From Fragilaria crotonensis (taxonomy: Eukaryota; Bacillariophyta; Fragilariophyceae; Fragilariales; Fragilariaceae): 64,000 nt of DNA. A program made the translations under genes and the position numbers. Location of the stretch: contig JAKSYS010000198.1 of NCBI GenBank assembly GCA_022925895.1, forward strand, positions 26,361 through 90,360. Direction: 5' to 3'. The notes under the pieces are model-generated. The model saw only the letters and a list, made by a program, of their open reading frames with translations, made no database searches and had not been told where the DNA came from. This document shows positions 2-58,084 of the stretch, in pieces; position 1 is the first letter of the stretch, and each line of letters opens with the position of its first letter.

Positions 2-1420
2 TACGAGGCTCTCTTGGCCATGAATGCCACCCGAAAGGCTCAACGTCGATATGACGAAGCGCAAGCTCTGGTAGACACGTGGAGTCGAGGAGGCGGCATC
101 GTAAACTTCACAATGCGACAGATAGAAACGGTAGCAAGATTTTTGCCCAATCAACGCGATCCTGATGAAATCGCCAACGAGGACGCAGAGAAGGCTAGGG
201 TACGAGAAGCGAAGCGAATACAACGCCAAAAGATGAAGGCTTTAAAGGAAGCAGCTAAAGTTGTTGTTGACTACAGACCTGTCATGAGTCGAATCATTGA
301 CGACTACCTATTTCGGTGTCCAACTTGGCATTATGCGCACACCATCAGTGGACTTCGAAGAAAATACAAGAGAGAAAAGAATGTATACGTGTATCGTTTC
401 AGCCAACCTACTCACATCCCTGGATACAAGGAATGCTGGGGCAAATCTTGCCACACTTCCGAACTGCCCTATGTGTTTCAAGCCATGCCGGTGATAAGAT
501 CAGACTACTCGACTCTGGGACCAATTGCGCAAAGAGAAGCACCCTCGGCTCCGGAATACCCGTACACTGATATCTTGGCTGCCTATCAAGGGGCGGTTGA
601 GGCCTACATAGCAGAGGATTGGCAAAACAGCGGAGTCGACGATGATCAGACTCAGGGCAATTACACTTACGCATTTCAACGTATCCTTAGTCACTTCTTC
701 GGTGACTATTTCAAGGAAGACGCCGACGAAGAGATATCGTCTGATATGTCGGAGCGCTGGACAGCATTTGCGAAGACCGGAGATCCTAACTACGAGGGTA
801 GCAAGGCTACCTGGCTTCCATGGCGGCACCAGCAACGCCGTTCTGATACTGACTCCCCGGTCGCGTCGGAAGATATGACCTGGCTCTTTGATGGTTATGA
901 CGAAGATTGAGCGAAGACGATCGGGATACAGAAGGGAGCGTGAAAAAATTGTGTGGGCTGATAGCAAGGCTGAAAGAGCCTACAGACGACGCGCTCTAGC
1001 CGCGCTGGGTTACGAGGTAGTCGATGAAGACATCTATCGTACTGAACTACGCCGTGCGGTACACAAGTCGCACGAGAATGAGCTCGATAAAGCCTTTCTG
1101 ACTAGTCGTTTTCTGTTCCGCAGTTCCTTACGGCTCGACCACGAGCAGGATTTGCGGGATGCAGAAGCTCAAGAGGTACTCCGCATCGCCCAGGAGATGG
1201 GGATAATGGGGATCGGACTTGCTGGAGAGCGTTCTTTATCTGAATGGAACGAAGATTTCTTTCCGGAGATGCTCGAGCTCAAGTGGCCACCTGAAGGTCG
1301 CTCTGTAGAAAGGGATTGCACCTGCGACATGTGGGACCGTATTCGATGTAAGTGAGCCTGTTCTATCAACATTGGAACTTATGCTGACTAACCATGATTG
1401 TAAACTCAGATCGATACTAG
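2..1420 (+). CDS. Type-B carboxylesterase, C-terminal part (5' truncated by window)
   Basis: This is the 3' end of an alpha/beta-hydrolase of the carboxylesterase type-B family, as found in diatoms with a long C-terminal tail. The frame is open from base 2, so the start and the catalytic Ser/Glu lie outside the window. Visible family signatures are VYVYRFSQPTHIPGY, CHTSELPYVFQ (the catalytic His region) and WTAFAKTGDPN. The frame then shifts by one base near 907, where removing one T of GATTGAG joins it to the next frame. That frame continues with RRRALAALG, YRTELRR and ends ELKWPPEGR, CTCDMWDRIR. An apparent stop at 1353 is avoided by a 62-base intron, 1348-1409 (GTAAGT...CTCAG). Splicing replaces C-K-stop with Y-R-Y-stop, so the last exon (1410-1420) adds only about three residues. 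The family call is firm. Whether the frameshift is a sequencing error or real cannot be decided here. Confidence 0.85.
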
Positions 1421-5815: not shown

Positions 5816-6279
5816 TCGACAGGGAGGCAAAAAAGTGAAGGTGGAGTGTATCGTGCAACAGACATTCTTTCTTGTTGTTCCCAAACTCCGCTTCCTCCAA
5901 ACAAGGTAGGTTTGTTCCTTTGACAAGCAGCATGCTGACTTGACTCCTGCATCTTGCTGTGTTGCCGATCCCATACCCATGAATATTTAGGCTTCTCGTG
6001 AATTGCAATATGTTGTCCAGGCATGATTGATCTACTGCCCACCCAGCCATGCCAATAACTCATTGAATTGTCGACACTGATGAGATCTGGTGGTTTGAAA
6101 TGGTTTTGCTTGTTTTTGGAAATCCATCCTCCACAGCAGCAAGTCAACAGGAACAGCTGCTGGTGCAAATGTCTCATACATCCTGTATTGTTGCTTGGCT
6201 GGTATTCTTGCTCTCTCTGTGTTATGAAAACCACCTTGCTCCACAAAAATAGTACCAACTGAAAACTGCTGAAAATCAA
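5816..6279 (-). pseudogene. Possible piggyBac-like transposase relic
   Basis: A minus-strand frame open for about 155 codons reads SVDNSMSYWHGWVG, then an EKPKY block. This resembles the D-E-S-M-S-x-W-x-G...K-P-E pattern of piggyBac-type (DDE_Tnp_1_7) transposases. There is no start codon, N-terminus or C-terminus. The frame runs into the hAT insertion point, so that element probably landed in or beside it. The match rests on a short motif only. A random open frame or another transposon family is possible. Confidence 0.3.
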
Positions 6280-6713
6280 TAATTTAATGCATGTTATGAC
6301 TCAATTGATCTTTTCCTTGAAAAATTATCTCTATCCCAGAGGTATTAGGATGCACCCGGGATGAGCATCAAAAAGGCATGACAGGGAACAACCCCCCCCC
6401 CCCCCCCCCCCAGAGTGAGCTTGGCATGTCCTTCGCGTGTGGACCTTTGATCCGTGATCAAATTCCAGTGGTCGAGAGAAATGTACGTCAAAAAAACTGG
6501 ATACATTGATGTTCATGACACAAATGATCTTGCAGATCCCATCGAAGTCTACACCACGAAGGCGAAGGAGACAACGAACTCAAAATGTAACAATCAAACC
6601 TTTTAGTCGGGTCCTGCATAGATCGGGGACTTCATAAAGAGCGGTGCGCGAGAAAAACACCATACATGACCTGAAAGACTTATAAAGGATGTCTAAAAGT
6701 ATATTCTATGTCA
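6280..6713. other. Intergenic, with a 20-base poly-C tract
   Basis: No gene is seen. A run of 20 C occupies 6392-6411. The rest is AT-rich sequence, presumably 3' flank of the minus-strand gene that ends at 6714. Confidence 0.6.
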
Positions 6714-7511
6714 CTATCGTGTTTGCGTCGTCGGGCTAACGCAAGAAGATCCTTCGTTGAGGCTGCCGGTGGTTGCAGTGTCGATCACCCATTTAGGTTG
6801 TGGCACACGATTCTGCTTGCATTTGTGTTCCTTGTCCGTATCGTCACCCATGACATGTGTGATATCACTTGCTGCTGAAAGCCGCGATCGCCGTTTGTAC
6901 ACGCGCTTGATCGACTGCAGCACCCGCTGAAACAACAAATGGGGAGACTTGTTACGATGGTGCCAAAGGGATCGGTGCGCTTGCCGAAAAAACTTGTGTC
7001 GCGCCGATGACACCAGAAAGCGCCACCCTCCCTTGCTCCACCACCGTGAGGAGTACAGGAATTTGGCAAATGGCAATCCTAATGATTGCAGTAGTGCGAG
7101 CGAACATATCTCGATAACGATCCGCGTCACAGTCCCGTGTGTCCAATCATGAGGAAGACGGTTTTCGGAAAGAGTTGACGTGGGGGCAACGAATGGAACT
7201 ATTGACTGCGTATACTCGGGGATTGACCAAGATTCTGGGTGTTTCAACCAAGATTCGGTCGTGTTCTCATAGGCGTCGTTCGTTGGGAACATGGTGTACC
7301 CGTTTTCGGCAGTTGGACACGGGGCGAAGGAAGCAGCTCCTATCAGAAGGAGTAACAAGAATGATGACGCTAAAGCTGGAAGAAAGAAATAATCCCCACG
7401 CCGTCCTTCTTTCTCTTCATTGTGTTGCACCAAACGAGGCAATTGGTAGAATCTCCAATGCTCGAGCATTGATTCTTTCACGGATGTCTTGTCCATCGCG
7501 ACAATGTTCAT
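6714..7511 (-). CDS. Hypothetical membrane protein
   Basis: A 265-codon single-exon frame starts with ATG at 7511, with a second ATG five codons later. One hydrophobic segment is clear, around residues 43-62 (FFLPALASSFLLLLLIGAAS). A weaker one lies around 130-150. The C-terminal third is rich in Lys/Arg and His. This suggests a small membrane-anchored protein. I recognise no family. Length and composition favour a real gene, but an exon boundary or a different start cannot be excluded. Its 5' end faces the clpP gene across about 0.84 kb. Confidence 0.5.
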   Translation of the reverse strand: MNIVAMDKTSVKESMLEHWRFYQLPRLVQHNEEKEGRRGDYFFLPALASSFLLLLLIGAASFAPCPTAENGYTMFPTNDAYENTTESWLKHPESWSIPEYTQSIVPFVAPTSTLSENRLPHDWTHGTVTRIVIEICSLALLQSLGLPFAKFLYSSRWWSKGGWRFLVSSARHKFFRQAHRSLWHHRNKSPHLLFQRVLQSIKRVYKRRSRLSAASDITHVMGDDTDKEHKCKQNRVPQPKWVIDTATTGSLNEGSSCVSPTTQTR

Positions 7512-8347
7512 GATTCTTGTTTTCTATGAACAGTCCAAGTCCCCTTTGGCTTACATCACCATCAAGCTAGAACAACAGGTTCTTGTTGTGTCAGGACATC
7601 CAAACCGAAGTCATATCGGCGATTTAAGATTTGTGGGTACCAATACGATCCCACCATTCACAAAGAGTTGATTGGAAGATTGGAAGTCTCGAATCTCGTC
7701 AACCCAACGTATGAAACGACGCCGTCATGAGTCGTGATTCGTGATGTCTATCGACGTCATCCTCAGTGCAATCCAGTAGGACTGCGGTACTGGATACCAG
7801 ATACTGCAAGTCGACTCACGGGGATTGAGGGCGTGCATCACAGGGAGTGGCAGGGGGCAGGCGGGGCGTGTCGGCGTGTCAGGTTCTTCGACGTCGAACG
7901 TCAAACCCCCACTATCTTACATACCAGTCTCCATTCGCCATTCTCCAGTTACGTGTACTTGGTACTCGGAGTACCGTAGCACTCGAACACTTCGAGACTG
8001 ACGCGCCAATCTTTTGTGAAACATTCCGAACGAATGTTCTTGTGACGACGGGACGCAAGACGCAAGACGCAAGCTACAGTTTGCGACTGGTACTCGTACT
8101 TCTGTACTTGAACACAGTTACAGGATAATGCAATATTCCGAGAACAGGGCTACAGTACTTTGATCTTTGAACCAAGGAGTACAGAACACTGTACTGTAGT
8201 ACTGAGTACAACGTACAATGGTACTGTCATATCTGACTACCATGTACTCCAGTACTCGGAGTACTGTCTACTGGCTTTTTGTGGGGATCATTCTCTCCGA
8301 TGATGTGTCTCGTTCAGCTGCAGACAAAATCAATTCTGAGATCCATC
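7512..8347. other. Divergent intergenic region with TACTCGGAGTA palindromes
   Basis: This holds the upstream regions of the minus gene at 6714-7511 and of clpP. From 7940 to 8275 it is dense in GTAC, AGTACT and TACTC/GAGTA words. Two copies of the near-palindrome TACTCGGAGTA lie at 7963-7973 and 8253-8263, the latter about 85 bases before the clpP start codon. No TATA box stands out. Confidence 0.5.
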
Positions 8348-9101
8348 ATGGCTTTATATTCATTTGCTGCCGCTGCGTCTCGCGCGTCATCACTCCTTCG
8401 CTCCACAACTCTTCGTCATTACTCAGTTCCCATAGTCTTGGAACAGGGACCTGGATCCGAACGCGCCTTTGATATTTACTCGCGATTGCTCCGCGAGCGT
8501 ATCATCTGTGTCCATGGCGAAGTCACCGATGTGATGGCCTCCCTCGTGACGGCACAATTGCTTTTCTTAGAGGCCGATGCGCCGGAGAAACCAATCTACA
8601 TGTATATCAATTCGCCTGGAGGACAAGTTACGTCAGGAATGGCCATGTACGATACGATGCAGTACGTATCACCCTTGGTGCATACGATTTGTATGGGACA
8701 AGCTGCGTCCATGGGATCGCTGCTCTTGGCAGGAGGGGCTCCTGGCTTTCGATTCGCACTGTAAGTGGATTTATGTGCTGGGTATGTTCGGTGCTTGCAT
8801 GGAAAGTACCGCGTGACAATGTTCTCACACGTTTGGTGCTTGTTCGAACAGTCCCAACTCGCGCATCATGCTGCACCAACCCAGTGGAGGTGCAGCTGGG
8901 AAGGCCAGCGATATTGCTATCATGGCACGAGAGATTCTGCGCACGAGAGCCACCCTCAACGACCTATATGTGCACCACACCGGTCAGCCCCTAGCGGAAA
9001 TTGAGCGAGTCATGGATCGTGATACCTTTCTGGATGCCAAGGAGGCACTTGAATTCGGTGTCATTGATCAAATTCTCGAGAAGCGAAAGAAGGACGATTG
9101 A
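8348..9101 (+). CDS. clpP: ATP-dependent Clp protease proteolytic subunit, mitochondrial
   Basis: This is the serine-protease chamber subunit of the ClpXP protease. There are two exons, 8348-8760 and 8852-9101, joined across a 91-base intron (GTAAGT...ACAG). Splicing gives ...[14 protein letters not shown], exactly the conserved ClpP order, and a 220-residue protein. The catalytic triad is complete: Ser121 in GQAASMGS, His146 in MLHQPSGG and Asp195 in MDRDTF. The spacings of 25 and 49 match those of bacterial ClpP. The first ~27 residues are Ala/Ser/Arg-rich without acidic residues and lack an ER signal or A-F-A-P motif, so a mitochondrial address is the best inference. Upstream in-frame codons exist, but this ATG gives the presequence. 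The 3' end lies 62 bases from the convergent M14-Hint gene. Confidence 0.95.
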
Positions 9102-9163
9102 TGTCGATAGCTACGAGAGACTGATGAAAAATACTTAACAGGTCATGGAGACTCAACCGTACA

Positions 9164-11756
9164 CTATCGGTAGGTCTTTTCCCTTATAACTTTATGCGAA
9201 TAGGCGCTTCGAATGAAAACAATAAGCAACACACCACTGCCCAACATGATAGACAAAAGCGAACAAGGACTCTTGATCAGTCCCTCAATGAAAAACAGAA
9301 TTCCACAGAGAGCCACTGTCAACATGACGAGAACAAGGGCAACGAAAGGGTGCTGATGTAGCATCCAGCAGACTGCTTTATGGGGAAGATTAACCCAACG
9401 AGAAACCCCAGACTCCGTGTAAGTCTCTCCGGCGATACCCATCCTGAAAGCAACTCGGTGGACCGACATAAAGATGTGAGACAACCATTGGTAGGTGAAT
9501 GGTGTATCGATACCTGCAACGTCGAAACGTGCTGAGTCGCTGAACGCCACGTAATTCGAGGCCATAATTCCATTGACGACAATGGTGCCAGATTCTGTGA
9601 AGGGAGCATAGACACCTTTGCGGATTACACTGCGGATAGATTTGACGAGAACCGTGTCACCGGCAGCGGTCGTCAGCTTGTCCCCACTTCTAACCGTCGA
9701 GGCTGGAATGTAATCTCCGTGTTGACTCTTGACCATGTGATCCCTGGAAATATCGAGTGGCTTATGGCGGCCTTGAGTAATAATCTGCATGAACTCGGCT
9801 GATTCATAAGCATTCCTGTGCCCGAACGAATAGATGGGTTCGTAGCGACCATCAGAGACCCGAACTACATCGCCAATTGCCAGATCAGCCATCTTGACAA
9901 CGCCTCTGTTCTGCACTTCAACCTCGGAATCCCCTGCGAAACAAGTCCTCGCCACTTGACTTCCTCGGGAGATTCGAATGGGCATTGAAAACCAAATCAC
10001 GCGTCCCTGAACAACTTTGTTGCCATTCACATGCTTCCACGAGGGGTTGGTCCTCACATTCGCCATGTGTGATTGAGGTGGAACGTCTGGTGCAACATTG
10101 GATGGCTGCGATGCCCACGAAGAATCGACTCGAGCACTGACCATAACAACGTATCCGCCGCTGCCACTGGATGTAGGTAGAGTAATGGTGGATGCAAAAC
10201 GCGGACCGATAGTAGAACTATGCAACGGAATTGGTCCTCCTGACGCCAGGAAACCAGACCCAGACAACTTCGTACCGCCCACAAACACTTTTGAAACCAT
10301 AGTTGTGCTTGGTTGTGCGACACAATTTAGCAACACGGCGGTAGATGCATTATTGGCTGGTGCAATCCACGCTTGGGTCTCATCGATGGATATGGCTCCA
10401 CCGACTGTCCAATATACTGTCACTTTCTTCGTGCTTGCGGCCACCTTGACAGTAGGCAACGAGTTGCAGGATCGAGCTTTCAGCGGACGGAAGTCGCCCA
10501 AGACCGTATTGCTGTTGACACCGACGATAGACAGGTAGGGTTCCACCATATCAATCGCCGATACCGAGAGCCTTATGTTTCGTGAAACATGACCATTTCC
10601 AGATGTGCCCTGGACTAACACATCCTTGGACGTGCCAAGTCCCGATGTTGGGAGCTTCTTCGAGCTGGTTTCGACCAGTATATTGAAGGCTCGCAGAGTA
10701 GCTGAGTTGTACACTGTCTTCTCAGCAGCATAACCACCGTTCGACCTCGGGTTGCACTTCGGAATATATGCCGTGTCCCAGGACCTACGGATACATACGA
10801 AGCATGGGTCAACTTCCTTCATGTGTTGTGTTCACATGCAGCACAAGCATTTAAACTTACCCAGCATACGCCCAATCTTCCATACCACCGCGAACGGGAT
10901 ACAGGATTTTATTCATCGCTCCAATGGGGTAGCTCCGCTGACCGCTCCAGCCACCGGCAAAGCGGGAAAATCCACTGGCTAATTGCACTTGAGCGGTGTC
11001 GTCGGGACTGATGGGATTCTTCAAGTAGGGAAGAGCACCCCACTCATAACCAATCAGGTCGATTCCTGCATGGAAAGTTAAGCTGAATTGAACAATGTTG
11101 CTACGAAATATCTCGTTCAACGTTCGAGCCGCAATTGTGTTCATGCACAGTGTGCTACTCTGATCATAGGGAAAGTCTCGATTCGGATCGTACCCGTTCT
11201 CAAACCGATTATTCTGATAATACCCAAGGGCATTTGCGGCAGGAACAATCACAATACGACGACTCGTCACTAGACGAGCCAACCATCGACGTTGCTTGTC
11301 GGCGAGTCCTTGTTTGGTAGTCAAGACCTGTCGACACGTGGTACTGTCTTCAGCTTCGCATGCTGCAGCCTTCAAAAAGAGCATGGCGGTTTCCATGACG
11401 GCCGTTGGGCCTACACGTTCATCTCCGTGAAGTGCACCTGAAAGAAGTACAGTCGGCAGGCGATTTGACGACGCTGATCCGACTGGATGGGCGATATAGT
11501 CTTGAATGATTCCAAAGTAGTTCAAGCATCCAACAGAAGAACCGTCAAAGGGGCAATCCGTGGACACTCCCGCACTAGGAAGGCCAAAGGCATCTTGGCT
11601 TGTCTTGACAGCAATCAAATTGGGATAATCCTTGCCCAATTGTACGATTGTCTGGTGAATCTCACTTGATGGCCAAATGCGATACTGGCGAGGATACGTT
11701 TGCGCGGCGCCGGAACCTGCAAAAGCCAACCACAGGACGCACTTTAAAATCTCCAT
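9164..11756 (-). CDS. M14 zinc carboxypeptidase fused to a Hedgehog/intein-type Hint domain, with C-terminal membrane segments
   Basis: Two exons, 11756-10861 and 10784-9164, are separated by a 76-base intron (GTAAG...CCGTAG) and encode 838 residues. Residues 1-19 form a signal peptide. Residues ~25-330 are an M14 metallocarboxypeptidase with a full active site: HGDE (His110, Glu113), Arg193 in DPNRDFP, His229 in LTFHAG and the catalytic Glu293 in RGGMEDWAY. Residues ~380-570 look like a Ser/Thr/Gly-rich beta region. A Hint domain starts at Cys580 (TCFAGDSEVEV). It has the DH pair at 647-648 (LDISRDHMV) and the VVNGIMASNY block near 702-710, which corresponds to the end of the Hedgehog Hint fold. 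Two hydrophobic segments (~778-800 and ~806-823) close the protein. Inference: a secreted peptidase released from, or anchored by, a self-processing C-terminus. Self-cleavage is not shown by sequence alone. Confidence 0.9.
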
Positions 11757-29043: not shown

Positions 29044-30456
29044 CTACGCTGACTGGAGCTGTTTGGCTTTCCGTTCCAACGATTCCACAACTCCTGCGAC
29101 AACGGCACGACCGTCACGAACGTATTTGTCGTACACTTCGAGTGCCTTGCGTCGCATGGCACATCGGGTTTCATTGGACATGGCTTCTAGAATACCAACC
29201 GACTGCGAGGCATTTTCTTCTCGGATCGACACACCCGCATCCTTCCAATCAACAAGCTCCGAGCTGAAAGGCCAAACCCAGTCATCAGCATAAACGAGTG
29301 GGATCGCTCCACAACTCAATTGTTCTGTAAAGCGATAGGAGAAAAGATTGTCACCCCTGGGACAGGCACCGAAGATACTCGTTTTGGCGAGCATTTTAAA
29401 GGCAAGCACGGGGCTTTCGGTATTGAAATGCCGACACAATGGACACCTTGCTGCCCCTAGTACAAGCACATCACTTCGATCTCTAAAGGTGACGGAAAGT
29501 GTGCGGCGCACTTCTGAGCGTAGTAAGCCAGAAAAACCGAACAGAATTGTCCTGTTGGTTTCGTTGCACGCTTCCACCGCAGCCCGTTCTGACTGAGTCA
29601 ATTGGCAGGGGTTTACTGCAGGCGGGGGAAGACCCAAGTCTTGGTCAGGGTGAAGTTGCGACTTGCTGGCAGACTGAGCCACAATGCGTAGTTTCGAGCC
29701 ATACTGCCTCTTTCTTTGCAACAATGGTGCCTTTGGACCCCAGCCTCCACAATCCCAAACAATGAGTGACGCTGTGTTTGGGGCGTTGGTGAAAAGGGGA
29801 GTGGTCATGATAGCATCGTAATCCGGGAAAGTCGAGCGACCGGAATACACGCGTCCGGGAAGATCCATGTTCTTAATCGGACCCCATCCGTAATATGGAT
29901 AGTTACGTTCATCGCACGTGTCCTGGTCGAGGAAGACGTAGTATCGCGTGGTGTTTGAAATAGCTAGTTTCCCTTCGTTCAAGTCTTGCCAGGCTGTAGG
30001 ATGAAACCACGGATGGTTGATGACACCATCCATTAATTCCCTCCCACGCATTCCTCGATACACGTGAGTTGCTTCCGTTTGATTGACGGCATTCCATCCA
30101 AAGGCGGTCAGCAACAGCATGGCCGGTGGTGGAGCGTTGTTCTTCGGAAGGTTCATCCACAGTCGCTTCGCATTTAATGTTGCATCCCACGGTAGAGTCT
30201 TGTCGTTCAGTGGCGAGGCTGGAACAAGAAACTCTTCTGTAGCTAAACTCACATTGCGGAGAGCATTGTTGTCATGGTACAGCTGCATCTTCATCAGAAG
30301 TGCATCGTTGGCCAGGGACGATGCTATAACCGACGATGACGAGGCAACGAGATGAAACACCGAATTAAAGTAAGTCGAAGTGCGGCTTCCAACAGCAGCC
30401 TGTGATATTAACATCACGGCGAGAAGGCCTACAGCCAGTAGCGTCCTCCTTTGCAT
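29044..30456 (-). CDS. Exostosin-family (GT47) glycosyltransferase
   Basis: A single-exon, 470-residue type II protein. MQRRTLLAVGLLAVMLISQA is a basic-then-hydrophobic signal anchor, placing the enzyme in the Golgi lumen. Family blocks are TRYYVFLDQDTCDERNYPYY, TRTILFGFSGLLRSEVRR (start of the C-terminal lobe), SIFGACPRGDNLFSYRFTEQ and LSCGAIPLVYADDWVWPF. The last two are the donor-binding heart of exostosin and plant GT47 enzymes. Several N-x-T/S sites are present. It probably transfers a sugar from a nucleotide sugar to a cell-surface or secreted polysaccharide; linkage and sugar are unknown. It is divergent from the sulfotransferase at 32037, with a hAT derivative between them. Confidence 0.88.
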   Translation of the reverse strand: MQRRTLLAVGLLAVMLISQAAVGSRTSTYFNSVFHLVASSSSVIASSLANDALLMKMQLYHDNNALRNVSLATEEFLVPASPLNDKTLPWDATLNAKRLWMNLPKNNAPPPAMLLLTAFGWNAVNQTEATHVYRGMRGRELMDGVINHPWFHPTAWQDLNEGKLAISNTTRYYVFLDQDTCDERNYPYYGWGPIKNMDLPGRVYSGRSTFPDYDAIMTTPLFTNAPNTASLIVWDCGGWGPKAPLLQRKRQYGSKLRIVAQSASKSQLHPDQDLGLPPPAVNPCQLTQSERAAVEACNETNRTILFGFSGLLRSEVRRTLSVTFRDRSDVLVLGAARCPLCRHFNTESPVLAFKMLAKTSIFGACPRGDNLFSYRFTEQLSCGAIPLVYADDWVWPFSSELVDWKDAGVSIREENASQSVGILEAMSNETRCAMRRKALEVYDKYVRDGRAVVAGVVESLERKAKQLQSA

Positions 30457-32036: not shown

Positions 32037-33305
32037 ATGACGGCCATTGGCCGCTTGGTTACTGCCAGAGTCCTTGCTGTGGCACTAATCGTCTTCCATG
32101 TCGTGTGCCTGATCCAGCTTCACGAGAAAGGATTGCTTACAATGAGAGATGAAATTGCGGCGACGCAAACTCTCGATCATCAAGCACAAACCGACGTCGC
32201 CCACCCGAATGGCGGGCAAAGCTTGGTTGCATCTCCTGTGGACAGCGAAAAGGTCCTCACTCTGACAGAATCCGACGCCTTGTTGATTCATCAGACTGAT
32301 GAGGGGAAACTTACTTCTCTTTCGAGACAAGCCTACACCACTTTGCACAGCTGTCGATTGCATAATAAGACTGTCATAGTACCCACTGCACCATATCTCA
32401 TCATCATCGGCGCACAAAAAGCTGGAACGACCAGCATGACCAAATGGCTGAACGAGCATCCACAAGTTTCTGCAGGATTACATCCTAATCGAAAGGAATC
32501 ACACTTCTTCCATGGCATCTTTGCTGGCCTTTTAGCGGCTAGGAAAGCTGGAACCTGGTCCGGTACGGACGATGAATTCTATTGCTGGGCTCGTCAGCGA
32601 TACGCCGAAGTACTTTATGACACGCGGAGTTTAATCAAGGGTATGGTCAATGGAAGGAATCCGCTCATTACTTTTGATAAGACGCCTGCCTACATTCACT
32701 TGAAGGATTGTCCAGAGTACGTTGCCAGGACGTGCCCTTGGGGTGTGAAAATCTTGGTAATGCTGCGCAACCCTGTGGATCGAGCATACTCCCAACATGA
32801 AATGGACAATGTTAAGAATTCGCATTTGTATCCTGCCTTTGAGGATCGACTTCGAAGCGAGGTGGGGAAGATGCGGCGGCTAGGCCTAAATCAAATGCCT
32901 CTCCTTCCGAAGAATGCGACCCAGGACATTGAAGGGCTCGTCTTTCCTGGACTGATCGGGACACACGAGGAGCAACTTGTGAGATTTGAGCAGCTGAAAG
33001 CGATGCCTCTTCTTAAGAAAGGAATGTATGCTATTCAACTCCGCGAATGGCTTAAAACGATCCCACGTTCAAACATTTTCGTCCAATTCTACGAAGATTT
33101 GAAACGAAACCCTGATCAAGTCTTTCTCAATGTGCAGCAATTCTTGGGCCTGCAAAATCACAGCCTGGCAACGTATTCGCACTTTAAAGCGGGTAATTAC
33201 ACTCCAATGAACAATGCAACTCGGCGCTACTTGGAACGCTTTTTTGAACCATACAATCGACAAATGGAGGAACTCTGGGGTGAGCCAATGCATGCAGCGT
33301 GGTAG
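32037..33305 (+). CDS. Golgi carbohydrate sulfotransferase (PAPS-dependent)
   Basis: A single exon of 422 residues. Residues 8-27 form a signal anchor (VTARVLAVALIVFHVVCLIQ). The sulfotransferase domain starts near 118 with YLIIIGAQKAGTTSMTKWL, where GAQKAGTT (125-132) is the 5'-phosphosulfate loop. It continues with ILVMLRNPVDRAYSQHEM near 240-255, the 3'-phosphate motif R-N-P-x-x-R-x-x-S. IFVQFYEDLKRNPDQVF is the typical late helix. This is the order of the heparan-sulfate N-/3-O-sulfotransferase type (Sulfotransfer_1). Probable role: moving sulfate from PAPS to secreted polysaccharide. The 3' end lies 27 bases from the convergent MATE gene. Confidence 0.9.
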   Translation: MTAIGRLVTARVLAVALIVFHVVCLIQLHEKGLLTMRDEIAATQTLDHQAQTDVAHPNGGQSLVASPVDSEKVLTLTESDALLIHQTDEGKLTSLSRQAYTTLHSCRLHNKTVIVPTAPYLIIIGAQKAGTTSMTKWLNEHPQVSAGLHPNRKESHFFHGIFAGLLAARKAGTWSGTDDEFYCWARQRYAEVLYDTRSLIKGMVNGRNPLITFDKTPAYIHLKDCPEYVARTCPWGVKILVMLRNPVDRAYSQHEMDNVKNSHLYPAFEDRLRSEVGKMRRLGLNQMPLLPKNATQDIEGLVFPGLIGTHEEQLVRFEQLKAMPLLKKGMYAIQLREWLKTIPRSNIFVQFYEDLKRNPDQVFLNVQQFLGLQNHSLATYSHFKAGNYTPMNNATRRYLERFFEPYNRQMEELWGEPMHAAW

Positions 33306-43561: not shown

Positions 43562-44920
43562 TTAATTGTTGTCCACCATATTGTCATCATCGGTATCTTC
43601 GCCGCCGCCATGCTCGTCGTTCCAGTTCTCCCACATCTCGACCATCAAGTCATGTTGAAGTAAATTGTGACTTGCAACACTTTGCATGTTTGTCACCAAC
43701 TCTTCTCTCTGGTCAATTGTTTGCCCCGGATCACGAGGTACGACAACAAAGTGATGCATTGGATCGTAGTTTGCGTCATCATTGAGGTAATCACCGTCGA
43801 TGTTGTGCTCACGTGAGTAGTCGATAATTAAATTATGCAAAATAACACACGTCCGCATCACAGTGTCCATTGCGCGACGGTTCCACAAACGACACGGACA
43901 CGACAATATGTGGAAGCGAGCCTGCAATATCCCAAAGGCACGCTCAATGTCCTTACGTTTGGCCTCTTGAGCCGTCACGAAAATTTCTGCATTGCAGTCG
44001 TCGCATTCGGAATGGTCTTCACGAAACACGCATAGTTTGGGTAGATACCATCCGCCAACCAGTATACTGAGTGTTCGTTACCATTCACTGTAAAATCAAC
44101 CCTTGAGCTTCCCCTGAACGGCATTGAAAAAGAGGCGACCGATCCAAAACACAGATGTCATTCAGACTTCCCGGTGATCCAAGTTGAAATGCCAGAACCT
44201 GGTACTCTGGTCAGCAATTGCCTCCAAAATGACGGTTGGCACGCCACTCTTACCCTGAAACATACCCTTCCAAGAAGAAGGGCAATTCTTCCACTCCCAG
44301 TGCATGCAGTCAATTGACCCAATGCACCCTGGGAATCCTGCTGCTTTACCCTCGTCAAGAAGTCTGTTGAGGTCGTCAATTGTCGGGTAACGAAGTGCTT
44401 CTTCACCGTAGACGGCAATTATTGCATGACAGAAACGTTTCAAGCATTGCATACCTGTCGACGCTGCCATGCGATACTTGTCGTCATGTTCCATGGGCGA
44501 CACGCCTGATGTCAGAAGACGGACTGCAGAACAAACCTTCTGTAGAGTAGAAAGACCAAGTTTTCCGGCAGCATCTTGCTTCTGTAGAAAATAGGGATCA
44601 CGATTGGAGAGCTCCTCAACAATGTTGTCAAACAGGCCCTTTGGGAGCTTGAAAAACTTCTTGAAGTACAAGTCATCATACACCGGAGTTGGGCCCCAAA
44701 AATCATTGTATAACAAGTGTGAGTACCTGACACGATGACGTTCAAGGTTTGGTGCCTTTCCAGGACGAGAACCACCCCACACAGCAGGTGGTGGTTCCTC
44801 TTCCACCACATGGTGAACCACTTCATCATCCTGGAATTCCTCGTCGTCAGCAAGAATGAGGGTTGTCGCAATATCGATGATGTCGGCATTGTCGTCCAAC
44901 AAGAGGAAGAGAACATCCAT
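43562..44920 (-). CDS. PIF/Harbinger transposase (DDE_Tnp_4 / HARBI1-like)
   Basis: It starts at ATG 44920 (MDVLFLLLDDN), chosen over upstream in-frame codons because the family begins with such an acidic leader. YNDFWGPTPVYDDLYFKKFF and VCSAVRLLTSGVSPMEHDDK precede the catalytic block GCIGSIDCMHWEWKNCPSSW (first Asp in S-I-D-C). Two homopolymer shifts follow, at 44187-44189 and 44100-44102. Across them the text continues GSPGSLNDICVLDRSPLFQ (second Asp), VYWLADGIYPNYACFVKTI, and KRKDIERAFGILQARFHILS, the E-R-A-F-G-x-L-Q-x-R catalytic Glu motif. The frame ends EDTDDDNMVDNN. Once the two shifts are set aside the gene looks complete. Confidence 0.88.
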
Positions 44921-45075
44921 GTTGATTGGTGTTGGTTTTCGTTTGTGAATCCTTTCCAAGATATGGTGCACGATCGATGGAAGCAAGTCAATCGAACTGA
45001 TCAAATAGAAGAAGATCCTGCAATCGAACTGATCGAATAGGACATATTTCGACACGCTACAATCTGACATTTGGT

Positions 45076-54240: not shown

Positions 54241-57200
54241 ATGGAAATCAACAGAGCATTGCTCAACAATGATTTCTTACCATCAGCACCAAACTCTCCA
54301 CCCAACACAGGCTCAACAGAACTCTTCCTGAAGACCCTTATCAACACATCAAAGATTTGGACCACCAAGTCTTGACAACTGGCTACCTGACAGTGGTGCC
54401 ACATGTCATTATACACCCGTTTTCAGCGACCTTCGTGATGTTGAAGCCTGCCACATCCCTGTCTCTCTTGCTGACGGAACCACCAAGATCTCAACATTCA
54501 AAGGAACCACTGACTGCTACTTCACCTCTGATGAAGGACAAAAGTCTATCCTTGGCCTAACTGATGTTTATTATATTGAAGGTCTCAGCCACCGCCTTCT
54601 TTCCTGACAACCATCTCTGCAACCCAGAATTTCACAGTCATCATCCAGAACAGAGCCACTACAATCCAGTTCCCAAACAATTCAAAATACACATGGCCCC
54701 TGCTCCTGCATGAACTCCCAACACAGAATGCCTTTTCTACCATGGCACAACCTGTGGACACCACACCTGATGAAACTTCCTTCTCCCTGCATTTGACCAA
54801 CATGTTGATCCTACACAAGCTGACACCTCAAGACCAACAACTTCTTTGCCTCTTGAGACCATATCCGTCGCCTTGCGCACCGAAATTTCCGCAATCTCAT
54901 GACCGGATCCCTGCATCACGCTTGAATGATCATACACTCTCGCCTGCGATTGACAAAAACACTTGGCCAATTCGTATCTCGATCAGCCAAAAACACGCTC
55001 GCAGCAAAATTCCTCTCAGACAAGGCTCAGAACCGTTTCACCAACTTCACCTTGATCTCATGAGAAACCCTTTCGGTTTGGACTCACCACTGCAACAAAC
55101 TATTCAGCCTACCTCTTTATTGTCACAACACCTGGCAAGCTAACTGGCTGGATAGGACTTCCAACTGAAAGCACCACATCCATCATCACAGCCCTTAAGT
55201 CCTGGCTTACTCAGACAGAACTACTTGGCCGCACAAAGTCCGTCCGCTTCATCCGTACTGATGCCGGATCTGCCTTTACATCTGCAAAATTCATCACAGA
55301 ATGCACCAACCTTGAATTAAACTTGAAGCTGCTGCTCCAGAACACCAAGAAATGAATGGCATCTGTGAAGCCAAATGGAGAGAAGTTCACAACACTGCAA
55401 ATGTACTTCTCAACACTGCCCGACTTGGCGGTGCCTTCTTCCATCATGCACATGCCTATGCTGTTAGCATTATTAATGCTTGTCCAGCCAAGAATGTGAC
55501 TGACCAACATGGCAACCCAACCACACCCTTCCAATACAGCTATGGCAGAAAACCAAGCCTTGCCAACTTCCGCGTATTTGGATGCCCTGTCTACTTCAAG
55601 CGCTACGAACCGACCTTCCGCAACAAGCTCATTACCTATAAGCAACAACTCCAACGTGCTTCCCGTGGTATCTTCATCGGATTTCCAGAGAACTCAGCCG
55701 GATGGCTAGTTTACTCTCCTGATCATCCGCAGCGCATCGTAATCACTCGCGACGCCTACTTTGATGAAGACTTCAGCTCTGCCCTTGCCTTTGATTCAAA
55801 GCCCTTGCCGGAGCCATTCCCATCCGATCTCACTTGGATCCCAATGGACTCCAATCTTTGGACAACTCTGAACCATCAATTGTCCACCAAACCGGATCTG
55901 CTGCCAATCTAGGCATCACACCATCCACCTATCTTGAAGAACTCCATGACTCTGAACAACTTTTACAAGCACAAGACAATGGCCCTTCAAGCCCTGCCCA
56001 TCCAGAAGATGATATTGATGACACTGATCCCATCACAGAATCTGACATCTCTCCTGGACCAACACCACCAACTCCTCAGCTGATCAACTGGACCTTTCAC
56101 CAACTGAGACACACCCCACTTCACAAGGAAATGACTTTATACTTCCAAGAGTGTGCTGAATCTCTGCCATCAGTTGATCCCATCCACACTGCCATGCTGC
56201 GTTGACGCATCCACAACTTCGCCCACCGACGATCCCGTGGACAAGTATCTCCTGAACCGCAATCCTTCAAAGCCGTTCTCAAACTTGACGATGACGTCCG
56301 CAATGCCTGGCTACATGCTATTCGCATGGAAATCAAGAACTTAATCGACCACGATACCTTCATTCTGGGTGAACAACCCCGGAAAGATGAACTCATCATC
56401 CCTGTCAAACTTGTCTTGAAAGCAAAACAAACTGCAACTGGTAAACTTGAAAAACTTAAAGCTCGCCTTGTCGCCCGTGGCGACTTGGAAAAACGACGAT
56501 TGAAGAAAACTAAAGCTGCTTACCAGCAATTTCTCCAACAACAAAAACAAGACAATGCTGAAAACAATCCTGAATCCAGCAAGACAACTAACACCATCCC
56601 AATTGAGGTACCTCAACCTTTTGAGGACACATGGTCACCCTGTGCATCTTCAAGAGGGGTCAAGTTACTTCTCTCAACAATCTGTGCATCCCACCGCACT
56701 CTCAAAAGTGCCGACTTCATTGGCGCATATCTACAAGCCAAAGTCATCGGTCGCCACTTTGTCAGACTTCCACTTGAGTATGCATATTACTTCCCTGAAT
56801 ATGCTAAATACTTTGGAACTCCAGCCCTTTTGAACAAGGGAATCTATGGACTTGTTTACTCTGGAAAATATTGGAACATTGAATTCTCTGAATGGCTTTA
56901 CTCCAAAGGATTCATCCAATCCCAGTCTGAACCCTCCTATTTTGTCTTTTACAACAAACACAACCAATGGTTACGCCTTCTCTTCTTTGTCGACGACATG
57001 CTCTACGCTGGCAGCAATGACGCCATCGAAAAGAATTCGAAGAATCTGTCCGCAATCGCTTTGACGTCAAGTTCCTTGGACCTGCTCAATGGTTCTTGCA
57101 AATGCGTATCCATCAACACAAAGACAAAACCTACACTCTCGACCAACATCGCTACGTTCTCAACACTTTGCAACGTTACGATCCCAACTCCGAGTTCCCT

Positions 57201-58084
57201 GAACGTGAAACACCATTCCCACCGGATTACACCTTCAGTAAAGACAATCGACCTGTCACCGATCATGACAAACAAGTTGTCGAACAACACGAAACGCCTC
57301 CCATTCCGCTCCGCTGTATGTACGCTACTCTATCTTGCCTACAACACCCGTGCTGATATCCTCTTCGCAGTCTGCAAACTTGCAAAAGCCTGCGTCTGCC
57401 CTGGCGAACTCGACTTCCGTGCTCTTATCTGGCTGATTGGCTACCTACGCCGTCGCCCATATTATGCCATCAAGTTCTACCGGATGCCACGACCAACCCT
57501 GTTTACGACATATGTCGTCAACACCGCATCCCCATTCCGACTTAACCGTATTTTCCGACGCCAGCTGGCAAGATTGCCCTGACACTGGCCGCTCTACTGT
57601 CGGTTATATGATCTTCCACAACGGTGCCCTCATCGAAGCCAACTCTACGATGCCAACACCAATTGCTATGTCAACGTCCGAGGCCGAATACATGGCCGCA
57701 TGCTCTGCCTCCATGGCCACAGCTCACATTCGGATGCTACTCTACGACATGACATATCTCGGAACCAAACATTGGCGCGAATCTATGCAGCGTCTTCCAA
57801 CCATTCCATCGATTCTCATGATCGACAACGAAGCCACTGTGCAGATCGCCAAGAACGGCAAATTAACCCGCAAGACTCGTCACATCGAACGACGTTTCCA
57901 CTATGTCCGTCAAGGCCAACAAGACGGTATACATCAACTACATTGGATACCTTGCGATTCTCAACTTGCCGACATCCTCACAAAAACACAAGTCTCTTCC
58001 AAAATTGATCAACACATTGACAAAGTCTTCTGTACACTACCTGATCACATGCTACAAGCTACAAGTGAATCTACAGAGATTTGA
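54241..58084 (+). CDS. Copia pol: protease, integrase, reverse transcriptase, RNase H
   Basis: The protease active site, WLPDSGATCHYTPVFSDL, has D-S-G at 54389-54397. Integrase lies at ~54960-55912: FHQLHLDLMRN, FIRTDAGSAFTS (second Asp), a break, HQEMNGICEAKWREVHNTAN (Glu region), then GRKPSLANFRVFGCPVYFKR. Reverse transcriptase is at ~56290-57010, with AWLHAIRMEIKNLIDHDTF, KARLVARGDLEKR, LKSADFIGAYLQAKV and the catalytic LLFFVDDMLYAG. RNase H, to the stop at 58082-58084, has VFSDASWQDCPDTGRSTVGY, STSEAEYMAACSAS, KTRHIERRFHYVRQ and DILTK. All domains are recognisable but lie in several frames, so this copy as sequenced cannot make one polyprotein. Confidence 0.92.

What the first reader, a model, noticed from the sequence alone, without database searches (positions are those of the whole stretch)
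9164..11756. Secreted M14 carboxypeptidase fused to a Hedgehog/intein-type Hint domain
One spliced frame joins a signal peptide, an M14 zinc carboxypeptidase with all expected active-site residues (H110, E113, R193, H229, E293), a beta-rich linker, a Hint domain with an N-terminal Cys580 and C-terminal hydrophobic segments. Hint domains self-cleave at their first Cys and in Hedgehog attach a lipid to the released N-terminal part. The architecture suggests a peptidase that is released or lipid-anchored by its own C-terminus, a 'hedgehog-like protease'. I know of no described M14-Hint protein. Domain calls follow from motifs; the processing is inferred.
Basis: partly seen in the sequence, partly recalled or inferred. 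Interest (0 to 1): 0.88.

Follow-up and report, generated by a model that had tools for sequence, protein, structure and literature searches.

The report
Diatom carboxypeptidase with hedgehog-type tail
A freshwater diatom makes a secreted protein-trimming enzyme whose usual membrane anchor has been replaced by the self-cutting, lipid-attaching tail best known from animal Hedgehog signals, which suggests that this tail may be used outside animals to anchor enzymes.

Summary
On the minus strand, exons 11756-10861 and 10784-9164 join into an 838-aa protein: signal peptide, M14 carboxypeptidase, beta domain, Hedgehog-type Hint at Cys580, two hydrophobic helices. The genome is almost certainly Fragilaria crotonensis. 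One full-length relative and two exon-2 ORFs carry the same junction. Of 115 Hint-less M14 relatives, 88 end in a transmembrane anchor and tail, as does a paralogue in this genome; similarity to them stops mostly about 5 residues before Cys580. The Hint has replaced an anchor. The predicted Hint fits fly Hedgehog at 1.2 A rmsd. His621 stands where Hedgehog has the general base Asp303 (His in 199 of 202 aligned rows); an engineered D303H Hedgehog keeps activity (PMC9163320). An SRR-like helix-loop-helix follows. The same tail occurs on other peptidases (S1, M43, M11, M4). Best reading: the tail self-cleaves at Cys580 and leaves the ectoenzyme sterol- or lipid-anchored; this is inferred, not shown. 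The catalytic Glu is probably E337, not E293.

The parts
10861..11756 (-). Exon 1: residues 1-298 and two bases of codon 299
11700..11756 (-). Signal peptide (about residues 1-19)
   Evidence: Read from the sequence; no signal-peptide program was run
10785..10860 (-). Intron, GTAAGT...TAG, 76 nt
   Evidence: the C291 copy has a 71-nt GT-AG intron at the same site; P0003 reads through the junction, P0005 and P0006 start there
9164..10784 (-). Exon 2: rest of codon 299 to the stop
11070..11429 (-). M14 metal site and substrate residues: H110, E113 (HGDE), N192-R193, H229
   Evidence: 118 of 118 rows each
10670..10672 (-). E337, probable catalytic Glu of the M14 domain
   Evidence: Invariant in 118 of 118 rows; its counterpart in P0003 (E335) lies in the strand at 330-335, within the M14 fold that runs to about 380; E293 aligns with GGMQD of M14B enzymes
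9962..10540 (-). C-terminal beta domain of the ectoenzyme (about residues 381-573)
   Evidence: Strands in the P0003 model; M14B structures align to model residue 560-569
9941..9943 (-). Cys580, first residue of the Hint; predicted cleavage just before it
   Evidence: C in 170 of the 172 of 202 rows that have a residue in this column
9548..9943 (-). Hint domain, residues 580-711
9818..9820 (-). His621, at the place of Asp303 (D46) of fly Hh
   Evidence: Aligned with D of 1AT0 and H of 6TYY; H in 199 of 202 rows
9737..9748 (-). SRDH, residues 645-648: the TxxH motif with Ser for Thr
   Evidence: S 173 and T 29 of 202, His 202 of 202
9359..9499 (-). SRR-like helix-loop-helix, residues 728-774 (helices 730-746 and 761-774)
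9170..9349 (-). Two long hydrophobic helices, residues 778-803 and 805-837, probably in the membrane

Best explanation
This is a secreted M14 (M14B-like) metallocarboxypeptidase whose C-terminal membrane anchor has been replaced by a Hog (Hint plus SRR-like) unit. Proposed mechanism: the signal peptide takes the precursor into the ER (inferred from sequence). The C-terminal hydrophobic helices and the helix-loop-helix hold the Hint domain at the membrane (predicted). Cys580, helped by S645/H648, turns the T579-C580 peptide bond into a thioester (inferred from Hedgehog). A membrane lipid, most likely a sterol, is activated by His621 and attacks the thioester. This releases the ectoenzyme (residues about 20-579) with the lipid on its new C-terminus, and leaves the Hog fragment behind in the membrane. 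The outcome would be a cell-surface carboxypeptidase held by a lipid instead of the transmembrane helix used by its relatives. Self-cleavage is about 80% likely and lipid ligation about 50%.
Against: No cleavage, ligation or expression data exist here. The residue before Cys1 is Thr here and mostly bulky in this set (I, F, L and V in 55 of 90; G in 7), whereas SHH has Gly (G198/C199 in mouse, PMC6027127). The Cys400 of Hh is Asn here (N in 105 of 202). The Pro of the SHH helix-1 pattern is Val in the window. Sequence similarity of the SRR part to animal Hh is weak: the fly match through the SRR is poor and the SHH match stops before it, and the solved structures listed cover the Hint part, barely the SRR part. 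The nucleophile could be another lipid or water. In 22 of 115 relatives BLAST similarity runs on to residue 585 or beyond, which I read as overextension. The second copy, on C291, has two single-base gaps that break its frame before the Hint; this may be a nanopore error (assembly method) or a broken allele.
Confidence: 0.5

Rival explanations
1. The Hog unit self-cleaves but the thioester is hydrolysed: the tail is a timed release device that turns a membrane-held precursor into a soluble secreted carboxypeptidase.
For: The Hint catalytic residues are present. The Hint-to-Hh match is strong but the SRR-to-Hh match is weak. [quoted passage not shown]
Against: An SRR-like helix-loop-helix with a conserved H-x6-R is kept, and the position of the sterol-activating base is His in 199 of 202; a purely hydrolytic domain would need neither.
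Confidence: 0.25
2. The Hint is not used for cleavage: the protein stays whole and the Hog unit with its hydrophobic helices is just a membrane anchor.
For: Strongly hydrophobic tails in 80 of the 81 Hog rows (of 90) with 40 or more residues after the SRR-like part; most M14 relatives look like plain membrane proteins.
Against: A bare anchor would not preserve Cys1 (170 of 172) and the block-B His (202 of 202); studied Hint domains self-cleave (recalled).
Confidence: 0.15
3. The lipid is not a sterol: the tail ligates another membrane alcohol or amine to the ectoenzyme.
For: His instead of Asp widens acceptor tolerance in the fly protein (PMC9163320 section 11); the SRR part is only loosely like that of animals.
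Against: No direct evidence for any other acceptor.
Confidence: 0.2
4. The fusion is an artefact of assembly or gene modelling: two neighbouring genes joined by mistake.
For: No RNA-seq was at hand; the C291 copy has a broken frame.
Against: P0003 carries the same fusion without interruption, and P0005 and P0006 carry the linker-Hint junction in one ORF. In the window itself the linker and the Hint are in one exon.
Confidence: 0.02

Closest known systems
Animal Hedgehog C-terminal domain (HhC, Hog; fly 1AT0, D46H mutant 6TYY)
   Same: Hint fold, Cys1, block-B His, position after a secreted N-terminal domain, SRR-like helix-loop-helix.
   Different: His for the general base Asp303, Ser for Thr in TxxH, Asn for Cys400, Thr rather than Gly before Cys1, two extra hydrophobic helices, and an active-type carboxypeptidase instead of the Hedge domain. 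Hedge itself is described as a DD-peptidase-like zinc fold (PMC6027127, abstract and passages).
Hog proteins of protists, algae, moss and nematodes (Burglin 2008, PMC2362128)
   Same: Secreted N-terminus plus Hog; N-termini that change quickly; Cys of motif J replaced (sections 9 and 16).
   Different: That paper's main text has no occurrence of diatom or peptidase, and names only GmGIN1 and Hoglet as having distinct other N-terminal domains.
Hog proteins of Cyanidiophyceae red algae (PMC13353863, passages only)
   Same: Hog joined to other domains, there kelch-like (K + Hog), in unicellular algae; described as of unknown function.
   Different: No peptidase partner in the passages seen.
M14B regulatory carboxypeptidases (CPD 3MN8/1QMU, CPN 2NSM, CPM 1UWY)
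   Different: The animal enzymes have no Hog, and a longer stretch separates GGMED from the last catalytic strand in the diatom protein (both recalled for the animal side, as are their TM and GPI anchors).
Diatom M14 carboxypeptidases with a TM anchor (such as P0048, Nitzschia inconspicua; P0044, Seminavis robusta)
   Same: The whole ectodomain, 47% and 45% identity.
   Different: They end in a TM helix and an acidic tail instead of a Hog.

Membership tests
Peptidase family M14 | Profile match over the curated cut-off | tested here: met
   48 bits against 21.6
Peptidase family M14 | HxxE...H zinc ligands, Asn-Arg for the substrate carboxylate, catalytic Glu | tested here: met
   H110, E113, H229, N192, R193 and E337 invariant in 118 of 118; the roles are recalled from carboxypeptidase A
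Peptidase family M14 | Carboxypeptidase fold | tested here: met
Peptidase family M14 | Exopeptidase activity | not testable with these tools
   Needs an assay
Hog (Hedgehog-type Hint) domain | Hint profile over the curated cut-off, closer to Hh than to inteins | tested here: met
Hog (Hedgehog-type Hint) domain | Cys1 and TxxH | tested here: met
   C580 and H648 present; Ser replaces Thr
Hog (Hedgehog-type Hint) domain | SRR or adduct recognition region after the Hint | tested here: inconclusive
   Helix-loop-helix predicted and Pfam match to model position 206 of 213, but weak sequence similarity to animal SRR
Hedgehog proper | Hedge N-terminal domain | tested here: not met
   The N-terminus is M14; Pfam lists no other domain there over its cut-off apart from the overlapping AstE_AspA_cat
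Hedgehog proper | General base Asp303 and Cys400 | tested here: not met
   H621 and N709
Hedgehog proper | Cholesterol ligation | not testable with these tools
   Needs biochemistry
Intein | Splicing with ligation of a C-extein | tested here: not met
   What follows the Hint is a short helix-loop-helix and two hydrophobic helices to the stop; no second part of a host protein

The most novel reading that the evidence does not exclude
Diatoms, and perhaps other algae, use Hog as a general plug-in that converts secreted enzymes (M14 and M43 in this genome; S1, M11, M4 and others in database proteins, mostly of unnamed organisms) into lipid-anchored surface enzymes. It runs on a natural His general base, the D303H chemistry so far known to me only from an engineered fly protein. 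This would be protein sterol-ylation outside animals. It would also give a living parallel for how Hedgehog, whose signalling part has a zinc-peptidase fold, could have arisen from a peptidase-Hog fusion.
Probability: 0.4. Interest if true: 0.9.

Novelty: new variant of a known kind. Interest (0 to 1): 0.72.

Why it matters
[quoted passage not shown] Here the cargo is a recognisable enzyme, a TM-anchored relative sits in the same genome, and the catalytic base is the residue that in an engineered Hedgehog widens sterol choice. That makes the question of what Hog domains do outside animals directly testable with one construct, one Cys mutant, one His mutant and a lipid label. It also offers Hint-SRR-like units that may have different acceptor preference.

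Tried and rejected
Artefact of splicing or assembly: rejected (P0003, P0005, P0006). Intein or mobile element inside a peptidase: rejected; nothing follows the Hint but helices to the stop, and Hh structures score above inteins. E293 as catalytic Glu: set aside in favour of E337. dN/dS of the Hog from the two copies of this gene: not possible, because the C291 copy has no codon difference from the window from residue 570 to the stop, only two one-base gaps just before; I used six other gene pairs. In one of them (L030/L031) the N-terminal part has dN/dS 1.23 while the Hog has 0.26. NCBIfam has no match for the window Hog and only weak, far-below-cut-off matches for the M14 part.

A dilysine ER-retrieval signal as a general feature: strict KKxx or KxKxx ends 28 of 87 Hog C-termini against 4.7 expected after shuffling the last 12 residues (the fly row and L033, L024a and L024c were left out; rows are related and some may be cut short), but the window protein itself ends EKTYR and has none.

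Multiple origins of M14-Hog: not shown. The four M14 rows need 2 changes on the tree, but starred branches force only 1, and 62% of bootstrap trees make them one clade (L033, L034, L024c, L035 and the fly row were left out). S1-Hog needs at least 3 by starred branches.

The Hog part of the full-length P0003 model is poor (pLDDT under 50 in four stretches) and was not used. Patched (PF02460) and M43 (PF05572) in the home genome: not completed, so nothing is claimed. In the main text of the pH-response paper of this species, hedgehog, hint domain, carboxypeptidase, peptidase and sterol do not occur. No paper describing an M14-Hint or other peptidase-Hog protein turned up in the listings of ten searches of the open PMC library only; several listings were capped (15 of 3,837, 20 of 40, 15 of 34, 12 of 25, 8 of 15) and most listed papers were not opened. 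Zhao 2019 on D303H and Burglin's Genome Biology review are not held, so whether natural His variants were noted there is unknown. PADLOC and PHROGs were not used.

Full report
WHAT IS THERE. The gene is on the minus strand. Exon 1 (11756-10861) and exon 2 (10784-9164) join across a 76-nt GT-AG intron into one frame of 838 aa. Pfam places Peptidase_M14 at 97-301 (E 1.7e-12) and Hint PF01079 at 578-768 (E 7.2e-24), both above curated cut-offs; AstE_AspA_cat (27.4 bits, cut-off 25) overlaps the M14 match. By single-sequence search the best solved relatives are Hedgehog autoprocessing domains for the Hint (6TYY, 3.3e-6); for the M14 part they are carboxypeptidases, weakly.

WHERE IT COMES FROM. 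The assembly has 62.1 Mb in 881 contigs. A database protein named MHU86_7569 [Fragilaria crotonensis], on a contig of 126,532 bases, shares its last 100 residues with the Hog ORF on our contig C876, which has the same length. The published F. crotonensis SAG 28.96 genome has 61.85 Mb in 879 contigs and was made from nanopore and Illumina reads (PMC9476933, first part of the text). I take the organism to be this freshwater diatom.

REAL OR ARTEFACT. A search of 5.8 billion proteins (238 proteins at E<=0.001 among the 8000 candidates scored; 120 listed) gave P0003, 847 aa, 62% identical over 99% of the query with both domains, and P0005 and P0006, ORFs that begin at the intron border and run from there through the linker and the Hint. 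For P0005 and P0006 the M14 exon was not seen. P0002 (95% identity) ends at the equivalent of R572; whether by a contig end is unknown. The home genome holds a second copy on C291, 95% identical over 4.2 kb, a stretch that includes the neighbouring ClpP-like gene. Up to the frame break its dN/dS against the window is 0.21 for the M14 part (residues 41-350) and 0.35 for the linker, with dS about 0.17 in both. From residue 570 to the stop it has no codon difference from the window; two one-base gaps just before break its frame. The reads were partly nanopore, so this may be an assembly fault, but a broken allele is not excluded.

AN ANCHOR EXCHANGED. Leaving out P0003 (Hint) and P0002 (end unknown), 115 relatives remain: 88 have a strongly hydrophobic stretch followed by 15 or more residues after the ectodomain, 3 have one nearer the end, 14 have none and 10 are too short to tell; some of these may be cut short. 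The home genome has a paralogue with a TM helix and an acidic tail on C131. BLAST similarity between the window protein and 115 relatives ends at residue 570-579 in 87; in 22 it runs to 585 or beyond, which I read as overextension. Thus the ectodomain is kept whole and the Hog starts where the stalk and anchor start in the relatives.

THE FAMILY AROUND IT. The home genome has 32 Hint matches, 31 marked over the cut-off, some being exon halves of one gene. Among the 20 regions fetched (six further contigs with Hint places were not fetched), N-terminal partners are PBP-like (L020 by Pfam; L030 and L031 by similarity), M43 peptidase (L028, L032), a Cys-rich part without a Pfam match (L024) and Pro-Thr-rich repeats (L018, L027, L029); several ORFs hold little but the Hog, because introns were not resolved. 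Database Hog proteins carry trypsin (P0152, P0173), M11 (P0183), M4 C-terminal domain (P0185), a beta-lactamase-family domain (P0178) and DOMON plus copper monooxygenase (P0157), and leucine-rich repeats. On a tree of 86 Hog rows the four M14-Hog rows lie within a group with LRR-Hog rows (16 rows, support 94/80, just short of starred); S1-Hog needs at least 3 changes by starred branches. Hint gene expansions in diatoms are in print: over 290 genes in Pleurosigma pacificum and 112 in Seminavis robusta (PMC12803021, passage), without description of partners in the passage I saw; Hint-domain proteins were also reported present during sexual reproduction of S. robusta (PMC3879662, passage).

HOW IT PROBABLY WORKS. 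Shown: the architecture, the conserved residues and the place of the junction. Predicted: fold, helices, membrane contact. Inferred from Hedgehog: thioester at Cys580, attack by a lipid activated by His621, an ectoenzyme left on the membrane by its new C-terminus. I give 0.8 to self-cleavage and 0.5 to ligation of a sterol or other lipid. The chief rival is hydrolytic release (0.25). The rivals overlap (non-sterol lipid is a variant of the best reading), so the figures do not add to one.

RELATION TO WHAT IS KNOWN. It is a Hog-type Hint protein and an M14 peptidase by sequence and fold tests, with the SRR part left open; it is not a Hedgehog (no Hedge domain, no Asp303). Burglin 2008 named only GmGIN1 and Hoglet as protist or fungal Hog proteins with distinct other N-terminal domains (PMC2362128 section 16); red-algal combinations of kelch with Hog are mentioned in PMC13353863 (passages). 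Hedgehog's own signalling domain is described as a DD-peptidase-type zinc fold (PMC6027127, abstract and passages), so peptidase-Hog fusions in diatoms are a parallel worth testing. That parallel is my inference, not a claim of descent.

Noticed in passing
window 8300-9103 +: A ClpP-like protease gene, convergent with the M14-Hog gene and kept beside it on contig C291 (read from the sequence; synteny).
   Followed up: no
window 44165-45070 - and 56326-57579 +: A plant-transposon protein (PF04827) and a Copia-type reverse transcriptase (PF07727); parts of 47-59 kb recur beside the C291 copy.
   Followed up: no
window 20-907 +, 29047-30456 -, 32037-33302 +: Carboxylesterase, exostosin-type GT47 and sulfotransferase domains.
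   Followed up: no
L022:4401-5327: This Hog ORF has Tyr instead of His at the Asp303 position; it may be a natural variant with altered or no acceptor activation.
   Followed up: no
L024 (C368:32000-41900): Three closely similar Cys-rich Hog ORFs within 7 kb, one on the other strand: recent local duplication.
   Followed up: no
Hog C-termini in many loci: Dilysine-type ends (KKxx or KxKxx) in 28 of 87 against 4.7 expected, a possible ER-retrieval signal for the Hog fragment.
   Followed up: partly
L019 (C291), about 5900-6842: The Hog part of the second copy has no codon difference from the window although the part before differs at silent sites (dS 0.16-0.18): collapsed assembly or gene conversion.
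   Followed up: partly
L028 and L032: Two M43 (pappalysin-type) metallopeptidases fused to Hog in the same genome.
   Followed up: partly
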